NCBI RefSeq assembly: GCF_008000815.1 | Contig: NZ_CP042806.1 | Span: forward strand, 496,001-560,000 | Reading direction: 5' to 3' | Source: Terriglobus albidus | GTDB taxonomy: Bacteria; Acidobacteriota; Terriglobia; Terriglobales; Acidobacteriaceae | Length of the DNA: 64,000 bases | Shown here: positions 14,433 through 16,529 of the stretch, piece after piece | How the letters are laid out: each line of letters begins with the position of its first letter | How positions within the stretch are numbered: position 1 is the stretch's first letter | Made by a program: the position numbers and the translations under genes | The notes under the pieces: generated by a model | The model's input: only the letters and a program-made list of their open reading frames with translations | Told to the model about the DNA's origin: nothing | Database searches by the model: none

Positions 14433-16529
14433 CTAGTCCCCGGCGACGGTCTCTTCGTCCTGCACCTTTGCCGGAGCGGCGGGCTTGATCTCACCCAGGG
14501 AGATGAAGCCGGGCTGCTCCTGCTCCTTGAGAATCTCCTTGCGGTAGAGCTTGGCCATCTGCGCGTTGACTGCATCCTGCTTCAGCTTGGCGTCGCGGGC
14601 GCGGATCTTCTCTTCGCGGGCGTTCTTGGCGATACCGGACTTCTCGAAGGTGTCGTTCGCGGCGGAGTCGACGTGAGCCTGGTTCAGAACCAGATCGTAC
14701 TTGTCCTGACGCTCCAGGCCGACCTTCTTACCACCGGCGAAGATCTCGTGACGGCCATGCTCCTCATACCACTTGGTGAGGGTGGAGGTCATGTGCATCT
14801 TCTCGATGATGTTGCGCCAGCCGATACCAGTGTTGTACGCGCAGAAGGAGATCTCGCCTTCCTGGGTGGCGTACGGGATGATGCACTGCTCGGTGCGGCG
14901 GAAGTCGTAGTTGAACAGGTCCTGGAACCACATGCCGGCGATGAACAGGAAGTTCCAGCGGTCGGCGCGGCGCTTCTCGATGTCGGCCATGGTGCGATCG
15001 CCGGTCACCTTGCCGTAGTTGCGGCCGGTGGCGCCGAAGCACTTGTCGAACTTCTGCAGCAGGTCAAGGATGCGGAAGTGCGTGGGCGACTTGGTGGGAT
15101 CGTAGTTGCGCAGCAGCGCAAGCGAAACACCCACGATCGAGAGGAACTTGCCGCGGGCGGCGTCGTTCACCTTCGCAACGTCCTTGGCAAGCTGTACGGC
15201 ATCCAGGAACTGGGTGACCGGAACAGCCTCCTTGGTCTCCTTGTCGATCATCAGCGCCATACCGATACCGCAGTTCGGGTGGCAGCCGCAGGAGAGCTGG
15301 CCCCACTCGTGATCCGGTCCGTGCACCAGGTCGGCCCAGTCCGAGAAGGTCGACATGAAGCTGATCGGGAACCAGTCACGGGTGCTCTCACCCAGACCGG
15401 TCTGGTTGCGGATGTCGTGCGCGAGGTGGCTCAGGGTGTAGCGCTGTGCGTGACGGCGCTCGTCGGAGACCTCTTCGTCACGGCCGGTGAACGAAACCGG
15501 CTGGAACGACAGGAAGTTGATCTTCTTCGGGTTATCCAGGGCGAACTGGATGATGCGGCCAACCTGCTCGTTGTTGATACCGTTGACGATGGTCGTTACG
15601 GGAACGATGTCCACGCCGGCCTCGTGCAGGTTATGGATGGCCTGGAGCTTTACGTCGAACGCATTGCCGACCTTGCGGTGCGAGTTGGCGGCGTTGCCGA
15701 TACCGTCGAACTGCAGGTAGGCATAACGCAGACCAGCCTCGGCGGCAGCCTTGGCGAACTCCTTGGACTTGGCGAACTCGATGCCGTTGGTCGCAGCCTG
15801 CACCGAGTTGTAGCCGACCTTACGGGCATAGGCGACAGCGTCCAGGAAGTAGGGCGACAGCGTCGGCTCACCACCGGAGAACTGCACCGACATCTGGCGG
15901 CGCGGCTTAATGGTAATGGCGTTGTCCAGCATGGTCTTAATCTCGTCCCACGTCAGTTCGTGAACGAAGCCCACCTGGTTGGCGTCCATGAAGCAGGGGT
16001 CGCACATCATGTTGCAGCGGTTGGTCAGGTCGATGGTCAGAACCGAACCGCGGCCGTGCGTCACGGTCGAGGTGCCGTGGTTGTGCAGCTTGGCGTCATT
16101 GTGGGCGCGGATGTCGCGGCCCGGGAAGACGTCCTCAAGGTGCTTCATCATGGCCGGGTCGATGGACATGACGTCCTCAAAGTGGCCGTGCTTCGGACAA
16201 TCCTTCACCATCAGGATCTTGCCGTCGCGCTCGATGATCTGAGCCTTGATCTCGCCGACCTTCTCGTTCAGCAGGATCTCGTGGGGCAGCTTGCCGTCGA
16301 GGATCTGCTGGCGGATCTCAGGAACGCACTTCGGGCAGAGAGAATCGGTCGTACGAGGCCAGCCAAGGGGGGGCTTCTCCTTCTGGTAGCTCTTCAGCAG
16401 CGGCTTGTCGCTCCACTTCGGTGTGAACGATGCGTTAGGGCTGATGCTGTTCAGCTTGTCAAAGATTGCCCACGCGCCTTTGGCCGCGTAAGTGATTGTC
16501 TTTTCTGCCAGTTTCGTGGCTCTTGCCAT
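14433..16529 (-). CDS. Radical SAM protein resembling tetraether / membrane-spanning lipid synthases (Tes/MSS-like)
   Basis: The start at 16529 is set by GAGAGGGAG five bases upstream, giving 698 residues. The radical SAM CxxxCxxC motif (CNMMCDPC) is at residues 172-179 and the SAM-contacting GGEPT at about 219-223. Before it lies the N-terminal metal region found in Tes/MJ0619-type enzymes: LCPKC (65-68) and DCPKHGHFED (111 onward). Further Cys groups (SCGCHPNCGIG, then CIIPYATQ and CAYNTG) could ligate auxiliary clusters. Tes enzymes join the ends of two lipid chains by sp3 C-C bond formation; Terriglobia make membrane-spanning iso-diabolic acid, so a role in that tail-to-tail coupling is a reasonable inference, not shown here. 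The C-terminal 100 residues are charged and helical. It is monocistronic, with its own terminator. Confidence 0.75.
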   Translation of the reverse strand: MARATKLAEKTITYAAKGAWAIFDKLNSISPNASFTPKWSDKPLLKSYQKEKPPLGWPRTTDSLCPKCVPEIRQQILDGKLPHEILLNEKVGEIKAQIIERDGKILMVKDCPKHGHFEDVMSIDPAMMKHLEDVFPGRDIRAHNDAKLHNHGTSTVTHGRGSVLTIDLTNRCNMMCDPCFMDANQVGFVHELTWDEIKTMLDNAITIKPRRQMSVQFSGGEPTLSPYFLDAVAYARKVGYNSVQAATNGIEFAKSKEFAKAAAEAGLRYAYLQFDGIGNAANSHRKVGNAFDVKLQAIHNLHEAGVDIVPVTTIVNGINNEQVGRIIQFALDNPKKINFLSFQPVSFTGRDEEVSDERRHAQRYTLSHLAHDIRNQTGLGESTRDWFPISFMSTFSDWADLVHGPDHEWGQLSCGCHPNCGIGMALMIDKETKEAVPVTQFLDAVQLAKDVAKVNDAARGKFLSIVGVSLALLRNYDPTKSPTHFRILDLLQKFDKCFGATGRNYGKVTGDRTMADIEKRRADRWNFLFIAGMWFQDLFNYDFRRTEQCIIPYATQEGEISFCAYNTGIGWRNIIEKMHMTSTLTKWYEEHGRHEIFAGGKKVGLERQDKYDLVLNQAHVDSAANDTFEKSGIAKNAREEKIRARDAKLKQDAVNAQMAKLYRKEILKEQEQPGFISLGEIKPAAPAKVQDEETVAGD

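What the first reader, a model, noticed from the sequence alone, without database searches (positions are those of the whole stretch)
14433..16529. Radical SAM protein with Tes/MSS-type N-terminal metal motifs: candidate membrane-spanning lipid synthase
The protein has the radical SAM triad CNMMCDPC preceded by the LCPKC and CPKHG motifs seen in tetraether synthases (Tes, MJ0619 type), plus extra Cys groups for auxiliary clusters. Terriglobia make iso-diabolic acid, a membrane-spanning lipid needing tail-to-tail C-C coupling of two acyl chains. Sequence supports the family; the lipid role is inferred from family and organism.
Basis: partly seen in the sequence, partly recalled or inferred. Interest (0 to 1): 0.8.

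Follow-up and report, generated by a model that had tools for sequence, protein, structure and literature searches.

The report
Acidobacterial Tes-like lipid-coupling enzyme candidate
A soil acidobacterium carries a gene for a radical enzyme built like the archaeal enzyme that welds two membrane lipids tail to tail; it belongs to a large bacterial branch that lacks the residues for one of that enzyme's metal clusters, and it is the best candidate for making the membrane-spanning fat that acidobacteria are known for.

Summary
It is homologous and structurally alike, from residue 56 to 595, to the archaeal tetraether synthase Tes/GDGT-MAS. It is not a standard Tes: it misses NCBIfam's Tes cut-off (322.5 against 450 bits) and belongs to a separate clade ("clade D"). 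All 154 clade-D sequences aligned keep the rubredoxin site, the radical SAM triad and the presumed C-terminal-cluster ligands. Between the first two sites, where Tes holds its N-terminal auxiliary cluster, 146 have no cysteine and 8 have one; the 30 canonical bacterial Tes compared have three or four. Clade D is in 180 of 200 genomes of this order and also in Myxococcota. In 8 of the 12 order genomes holding both clade D and canonical Tes, the genes lie on one strand within 11 kb. Best reading: it joins the tails of two iso-C15 acyl lipids into ester-bound iso-diabolic acid; substrate and chemistry are inferred. The general idea was published in 2022; I saw no paper that separates this clade.

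The parts
14433..16529 (-). Gene of the clade-D Tes-like radical SAM protein, 698 aa
   Evidence: start supported by AGGGAG at 16534-16539 and by the common start of several close family members
16449..16526 (-). N-terminal amphipathic helix, residues 2-27, before the part that matches 7TOM; possible membrane contact (inference)
   Evidence: block means of pLDDT 90-97; hydrophobic moment 0.48, reached by 26 of 10000 shuffles; the match to 7TOM starts at residue 56
16164..16358 (-). Rubredoxin/zinc-ribbon domain, residues 58-122, with C65, C68, C111, H114
   Evidence: Pfam PF23545; aligned to MJ0619 C9, C12, C33, H36, kept in 154 of 154
16056..16094 (-). Place where Tes has its N-terminal auxiliary [4Fe-4S] loop; its cysteines are absent here (residues about 146-158)
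   Evidence: MJ0619 C77 and C80 columns: no Cys in 154 of 154; C73 column: Cys in 1 of 154; canonical bacterial Tes Cys in 30 of 30 at each
15540..16028 (-). Radical SAM core, residues 168-330
   Evidence: Pfam PF04055
15993..16016 (-). CNMMCDPC, radical SAM cluster ligands C172, C176, C179
   Evidence: aligned to MJ0619 C98, C102, C105; 154 of 154
15270..15290 (-). CGCHPNC, residues 414-420: C420 aligns with MJ0619 C338; C414 and C416 are further invariant cysteines of clade D
   Evidence: 154 of 154 each; in canonical bacterial Tes the C414 column is Cys in 10% and the C416 column in 80% of 30
14931..14933 (-). Met533, aligned with the labile Met439 ligand of the C-terminal [4Fe-4S] cluster
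   Evidence: 154 of 154; ligand role in MJ0619 from PMC9433317
14841..14885 (-). C549 and C563, presumed C-terminal cluster ligands, and Tyr553 (MJ0619 Tyr459)
   Evidence: 154 of 154; ligand assignment of the two Cys is inferred from conservation
14436..14744 (-). C-terminal extension, residues 596-698, with a long helix (637-665); poorly conserved

Best explanation
The protein is a radical SAM lipid-coupling enzyme of a Tes-like bacterial clade. It most likely makes iso-diabolic acid: a 5'-deoxyadenosyl radical takes a hydrogen from the terminal methyl of an iso-C15 acyl chain bound in a hydrophobic tunnel; the carbon radical is parked on a sulfur of the C-terminal [4Fe-4S] cluster; a second SAM activates the end of a second acyl chain; the two ends join into the C28 diacid with methyls at 13 and 16, still esterified to glycerol at both ends. 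Shown here: homology, fold, conservation of the radical SAM, rubredoxin and presumed C-terminal-cluster residues, lack of the N-terminal cluster cysteines, distribution, linkage to canonical Tes in part of the genomes that have both, and that searches find no other Tes-superfamily protein in this genome. Inferred: substrate, product, ester linkage, the tunnel, the two-SAM mechanism (carried over from GDGT-MAS, PMC9433317), membrane contact of the N-terminal helix.
For: Tes homology and fold. Most residues reported to touch SAM products, and the presumed C-terminal-cluster residues, are kept. Clade D is nested among canonical bacterial Tes in a tree rooted on TrsS-like proteins. Present in 180 of 200 genomes of the order; six Edaphobacter strains carry 11.8-30.4% iso-diabolic acid (table passage of PMC11354219), and E. 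aggregans was reported to hold one Tes homolog, at 32% identity to the query against 40-42% for Solibacter and Koribacter (PMC8941075), as a clade-D protein would (inference). Eight of 12 order genomes with both genes have them on one strand within 11 kb, in six genera. In sister family f2, 6 genomes have only canonical Tes, 4 only clade D, none both. No other Tes or TrsS relative in G000. iso-C15 and archaeal chains end alike, as Zeng et al. note. No PF09989 (Ger/PlsA-type domain) protein in G000, hence ester rather than ether (inference).
Against: No bacterial Tes homolog has been confirmed by experiment, according to PMC11868695 (2025). The score misses the Tes cut-off, and one metal site is gone. 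There is no common lipid-gene neighbourhood in 41 loci. Twelve of 200 order genomes have neither gene, some nearly complete (G139 99%, G103 98%). Clade D also occurs in MAGs titled gp2, gp7, gp18 and Holophagales, outside the subdivisions 1, 3, 4 and 6 for which a paper passage lists iso-diabolic acid, and in Myxococcota, whose lipids I did not find described (one search gave one paper, seen as a listing only). Mss, a different tested enzyme, may do the job in this phylum; it could not be compared.
Confidence: 0.66

Rival explanations
1. Clade D is a lipid-modifying radical SAM enzyme but does another step on the same chains: for example cross-linking, cyclisation or methylation of iso-diabolic or brGDGT chains, while another enzyme (an Mss type) forms the first tail-to-tail bond.
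For: It lies near canonical Tes in 8 of 12 order genomes that have both, which fits two different steps of one pathway as well as one shared step. It lacks the N-terminal cluster cysteines and has further invariant cysteines. Canonical Tes goes with PF09989 proteins (15 of 20 against 50 of 180).
Against: In most order genomes clade D stands without Tes (168 of 200) although cultivated Edaphobacter make much iso-diabolic acid, so it cannot only serve Tes. In f2 one or the other is present, never both, in 10 of 14 genomes, which looks like replacement.
Confidence: 0.18
2. It acts on another hydrophobic substrate (hopanoid, menaquinone, a secondary lipid) and the link to iso-diabolic acid is coincidence of taxonomy.
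For: Wide spread, including Myxococcota and subdivisions not listed as iso-diabolic acid makers, without a telling gene neighbourhood.
Against: Residue-level match to an enzyme whose structure binds two phospholipids, over 466 residues. Hopanoid and menaquinone radical SAM enzymes of this genome are separately present (HpnH, HpnJ, MqnC, MqnE).
Confidence: 0.13
3. A pterin methyltransferase, as the Pfam zinc-ribbon name (HMPTM) suggests.
For: PF23545 'HMPTM N-terminal zinc ribbon' hit.
Against: MJ0619 itself was first annotated as a pterin methylase, which Lloyd et al. could not corroborate and replaced after solving the structure (PMC9433317, section 5 read); that the Pfam name goes back to that annotation is my inference.
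Confidence: 0.02

Closest known systems
Archaeal tetraether synthase Tes / GDGT-MAS (MJ0619; PDB 7TOL, 7TOM)
   Same: Fold from residue 56 to 595, rubredoxin ligands, radical SAM triad, Met439, Tyr459, three C-terminal cysteines and most SAM-contacting residues (exceptions in 154: Arg210 is Lys or other, Thr238 is Cys in 12, Thr273 is Ser in 1).
   Different: No N-terminal auxiliary [4Fe-4S] cysteine set; invariant C414 and C416; 42 residues between C68 and C111 (42 in 149 of 154 clade D) against 20 in MJ0619; an N-terminal helix and a C-terminal extension; 322.5 bits against a 450-bit cut-off.
Canonical bacterial Tes homologs of Acidobacteriota (Koribacter and Solibacter have homologs at 42 and 40%, PMC8941075)
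   Same: Same superfamily; clade D branches from among them; sometimes close by in one genome.
   Different: They pass the Tes cut-off (472 bits and more), keep the N-terminal cluster cysteines in 30 of 30 and the 20-residue rubredoxin loop in 29 of 29 complete rows. 28-40% identity to P0002. That the Koribacter and Solibacter proteins are of this kind is inferred from their higher identity.
Bacterial membrane-spanning lipid synthase Mss (Thermotoga maritima; Sahonero-Canavesi 2022)
   Same: Expected reaction (tail-to-tail coupling of acyl chains); models of Mss are reported to share the Tes catalytic architecture (PMC13274423, passage).
   Different: Not comparable here: the sequence was not in reach and the paper is not held. 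T. maritima shows no Tes-model hit at 1e-20.
TrsS, radical SAM (seleno)protein (NCBIfam NF045646)
   Same: Shares the zinc-ribbon plus radical SAM plan; second-best NCBIfam hit, 211 bits.
   Different: Under its 490-bit cut-off; TrsS-like proteins (three over that cut-off, one under) served as outgroup of the tree.

Membership tests
Tes / GDGT-MAS | Radical SAM CX3CX2C triad | tested here: met
   C172, C176, C179; 154 of 154 clade D
Tes / GDGT-MAS | Rubredoxin-like site C9, C12, C33, H36 | tested here: met
   C65, C68, C111, H114; 154 of 154
Tes / GDGT-MAS | N-terminal auxiliary [4Fe-4S] ligands C73, C77, C80 plus His | tested here: not met
   P0002 has none. Clade D: Cys at C77 or C80 in 0 of 154, at C73 in 1 of 154; canonical bacterial Tes 30 of 30. 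Free of the alignment columns: Cys between rubredoxin His and the triad 0 in 146 and 1 in 8 clade-D rows, 3 or 4 in 30 of 30 canonical
Tes / GDGT-MAS | C-terminal [4Fe-4S] with labile Met439 | tested here: met
   M533, C420, C549, C563 aligned, 154 of 154; that C338, C455, C470 are the ligands in MJ0619 is inferred from conservation, not read in the paper
Tes / GDGT-MAS | Fold of the whole solved chain | tested here: met
   7TOM Z 35.0, rmsd 2.7, 466 aligned of 498; next family MoaA Z 18.2
Tes / GDGT-MAS | Curated NCBIfam score for Tes (NF045702, 450 bits) | tested here: not met
   322.5 bits
Tes / GDGT-MAS | Hydrophobic tunnel lined for two lipid tails | not testable with these tools
Tes / GDGT-MAS | Tail-to-tail coupling activity | not testable with these tools
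   needs an assay
Mss | Sequence similarity to T. maritima Mss | not testable with these tools
   Mss sequence not in reach, source paper not held
TrsS | Curated NCBIfam score (NF045646, 490 bits) | tested here: not met
   211.1 bits

The most novel reading that the evidence does not exclude
Acidobacteria run two Tes-type enzymes with a division of labour. Clade D, which lacks the N-terminal auxiliary cluster, makes ester-bound iso-diabolic acid under ordinary aerobic growth; canonical Tes, found more often in genomes with PF09989 (Ger/PlsA-type) proteins and often near clade D, completes ether-bound brGDGTs. Sorangium and other Myxococcota with clade D would then be unrecognised makers of membrane-spanning lipids.
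Probability: 0.24. Interest if true: 0.85.

Novelty: new variant of a known kind. Interest (0 to 1): 0.52.

Why it matters
brGDGTs and their building block iso-diabolic acid underlie a widely used climate proxy (PMC13274423), but I found no experiment showing the coupling enzyme of the acidobacteria. One gene, present in 180 of 200 genomes of the order and separable from canonical Tes by a motif, gives a gene-removal test and a marker for reading metagenomes. If active, it would also show that Tes chemistry does not need the N-terminal auxiliary cluster, one of the metal sites whose role Lloyd et al. left open (PMC9433317, section 8).

Tried and rejected
Conserved operon: neighbours of clade D in 41 loci (40 neighbourhoods plus the window) show no common lipid gene (only 20 neighbour proteins were scanned). 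The first gene picking chose antisense frames and was redone with a codon score; in that redo three loci (L075, L076, L084) lost their clade-D gene, so neighbour counts are lower bounds. A gene family with one member shown to be an Rrf2 regulator lies upstream on the same strand in 5 loci, next to clade D in three, too few to build on.

Either-or pattern between clade D and Tes: over the order Tes is in 8 of 20 genomes without clade D and in 12 of 180 with it (Fisher p 1.4e-4), but within family f1 alone 2 of 10 against 12 of 176 (p 0.17), so the signal comes mostly from f2; related genomes are not independent. In the wider phylum set 12 of 34 Tes genomes also hold clade D, which is no exclusion. 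The tie of Tes to PF09989 (15 of 20 against 50 of 180; f1 alone 10 of 14 against 45 of 172) has the same weakness, and that PF09989 marks Ger/PlsA proteins is partly recall: Ger-bearing T. maritima rings, but so do other control genomes.

Subdivisions without iso-diabolic acid could not be checked by name. Chloracidobacterium for G348 is only a guess from contig size (2.64 Mb) against PMC12816986. Two papers disagree on how common iso-diabolic acid was in 17 subdivision 1 and 3 cultures: one passage says a high abundance, 20-40%, in the 17 examined (PMC13274423), a review passage says substantial in 3 of 17 (PMC11767167); the 2011 source was not opened.

Mss could not be obtained. The 25 other radical SAM genes of G000 were scanned: 13 pass a named NCBIfam cut-off (MoaA, MiaB, HpnJ, RimO, PqqE, MqnC, HpnH, HemW, MqnE, LipA, quinohemoprotein maturase, two RlmN); 12 do not, so a Mss homolog among them is not excluded. 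The Tes model at 1e-20 also rings in Bacillus subtilis and Thermus composti, under its cut-off, so a sub-cut-off score alone proves little; the case rests on structure, residues and tree.

Structure: no family other than Tes came near; absence there excludes nothing.

Full report
WHAT IS THERE. The open frame 14433-16529 lies on the minus strand: 698 residues from ATG 16529, with an AGGGAG site before it. The plus-strand frame over the same bases (730 aa) I take to be a shadow of it. Pfam finds Radical_SAM (168-330) and the zinc ribbon PF23545 (58-122). NCBIfam's best model is Tes, 322.5 bits, E 4.1e-96, under its 450-bit cut-off; TrsS is second at 211. Among solved structures MJ0619 (7TOL) is first, 5e-61, and MoaA next at 5e-6.

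ORGANISM. The window is 496001-560000 of a single-contig genome of 6,405,582 bases. 'The order' below is the tool's rank.

TWO FAMILIES, NOT ONE. Searching 297 genomes of the phylum with the Tes model gave 179 with a hit at 1e-20, 34 of them over the cut-off. The rows printed split cleanly: 472 bits and above, then nothing until 349.9 and a long run down to about 314, where the list was cut; weaker hits were not printed. The group at 300-350 bits, with the window's protein, I call clade D; the high group canonical Tes. In a tree of 87 proteins clade D (51 rows) is one side of a branch (SH-aLRT 100, stem 2.47), and canonical Tes L058, L060, L061 are the rows nearest its base; four TrsS-like proteins were the outgroup. 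The tool warns of long branches meeting, and the branches at the root are weak, so the exact attachment is unsure; the separation of clade D is well supported.

METAL SITES. Lloyd et al. (PMC9433317: abstract, sections 5, 7, 8, part 1 of 29 and passages read) give the sites of MJ0619: rubredoxin C9, C12, C33, H36; N-terminal auxiliary [4Fe-4S] C73, C77, C80 and a histidine; the radical SAM triad; a C-terminal [4Fe-4S] with labile Met439. I aligned MJ0619 with 70 clade-D and 30 canonical proteins and then with 154 clade-D and the same 30. Rows were chosen by BLAST score or by the named scan, not by cluster motif (the scan's patterns were TNRCNMM and FSGGEP); copies of P0002, three duplicate Tes rows and one partial clade-D frame (in L037) were left out. 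Clade D keeps the rubredoxin site, the triad, Gln268, Met439, Tyr459, C338, C455 and C470 in 154 of 154. Cys at the C77 and C80 columns: 0 of 154; at C73: 1 of 154; canonical Tes 30 of 30 each. In the whole stretch between rubredoxin His and triad, 146 clade-D rows have no Cys and 8 have one; the 30 canonical rows have three or four. The rubredoxin loop is 42 residues long in 149 of 154 (43-48 in the rest) against 20 in 29 of 29 complete canonical rows. C414 and C416 (motif CGCHPNC, in some rows CNCHPNC) are invariant; the C416 column is also Cys in 80% of canonical Tes. Arg210 of MJ0619 is not conserved in clade D, and Thr238 is Cys in 12 of 154.

FOLD. AlphaFold2 on 55 sequences: mean pLDDT 83.1, pTM 0.86, under 50 at the cluster loops and the last 15 residues. 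Foldseek: 7TOM E 7e-30, TM 0.84 of the target. VIA-align: 7TOM Z 35.0, rmsd 2.7, 466 aligned, model 56-595; the next family, MoaA, Z 18.2 over 275. Residues 2-27 form a strongly amphipathic helix (26 of 10000 shuffles reach its moment); of 79 family rows for which a like window could be cut, 41 pass 5%. I could not measure the tunnel.

DISTRIBUTION. Of 200 genomes of the order, 189 match at 1e-20. Closer reading leaves 180 with clade D (a few in fragments), 20 with canonical Tes (19 over the cut-off plus G124, partial), 12 with both, 8 with Tes only, 12 with neither; G138, a 34% match, and G195, with only a short C-terminal match, I count as neither. In family f2: 6 Tes only, 4 clade D only, 4 neither, 0 both; those four are 54-88% complete. 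In the phylum set, 12 of 34 Tes genomes also hold clade D.

LINKAGE. In the order, 12 genomes hold both. In 8 the genes lie on one contig and one strand: G041 and G144 about 0.5 kb apart, G150, G093 and G178 2.5-3 kb, G022 3.7, G012 6, G063 11 kb. In G096, G157, G098 and G124 they are on different contigs; in G098 clade D is split over contig ends, so its place is unknown. Genera of the eight: g5 and g11 (two genomes each), g16, g25, g37, g44. A DUF4440/SnoaL-like small protein lies downstream of Tes in 6 of 8 clusters, directly next in 5 (Pfam on two members). For genomes of 3-6 Mb this closeness is unlikely by chance (my estimate, not computed), though the genomes are related.

WHAT IT DOES. 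G000 has 26 radical SAM genes by Pfam; this is the only one found of the Tes/TrsS superfamily. Six Edaphobacter strains have 11.8-30.4% iso-diabolic acid (PMC11354219, passages), Chloracidobacterium lists it among primary fatty acids (PMC12816986, passages), and a paper passage lists subdivisions 1, 3, 4 and 6 (PMC13274423). The acid is likely two iso-C15 chains joined at their tails, the kind of bond Tes makes between alike chain ends. G000 and the 12 other genomes of its genus in the set have no PF09989 protein, so I expect ester-bound product here.

WHAT IS KNOWN. Zeng et al. (PMC8941075, passages) reported 456 bacterial Tes homologs, named E. aggregans (32%), Koribacter (42%) and Solibacter (40%), and proposed brGDGT synthesis. 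Halamka et al. (PMC10087280, passages) proposed Tes homologs in S. usitatus. Castillo Boukhchtaber et al. (PMC11868695, passages) state that bacterial Tes function is unconfirmed. Mss is a separate tested enzyme (PMC11604127, PMC13274423, passages). PMC11186832, PMC12042123 and PMC11767167 were seen as passages. In what I saw (listings, abstract starts and passages) from searches of open-licence papers, none separates clade D or notes its missing cluster; Sahonero-Canavesi 2022 was not held, and supplements were not read.

VERDICT. A real, well-conserved Tes-like enzyme and the best candidate found for the iso-diabolic acid synthase of this organism; not filed as Tes, because one defining metal site and the curated score fail. 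It works, most likely, like Tes. New variant of a known kind. After the recount the confidence was lowered slightly (0.68 to 0.66), for the clade-D hits in subdivisions not listed as producers.

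Noticed in passing
G000 contig 1, 3554184-3564172 (outside the window; L233, L235, L238, L240, L244, L245): Six radical SAM genes within 10 kb on one strand; L244 has a B12-binding domain, four others hit BchE, PhpK or the ladder-lipid B12 model (TIGR04072) under the cut-offs, L245 hits nothing at 1e-30.
   Followed up: partly
L138, L163, L175, L178, L191: Sorangium cellulosum and Minicystis rosea (Myxococcota) carry clade-D proteins at 54-57% identity to the window's; their membrane-spanning lipids seem worth measuring.
   Followed up: partly
L099:6261-6800, L220:19422-19865 and four like loci: A small DUF4440/SnoaL-like protein, some with a lipoprotein-like start by eye, lies downstream of canonical Tes in 6 of 8 D-Tes clusters.
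   Followed up: partly
L062:5967-6470, L064, L066, L067, L069: A gene family whose L062 member is an Rrf2-type regulator lies upstream on the same strand in 5 loci of the deep-branching group, next to clade D in L064, L066 and L069.
   Followed up: no
window 6918-14173 and 16908-19981: lptD and bamA (Omp85 with five POTRA matches), both on the minus strand, lie downstream of the gene, with an RDD-family gene between them on the other strand; a glyoxalase-like, a DsbA-like, a SurA-like and a HIT protein lie upstream on the plus strand.
   Followed up: no
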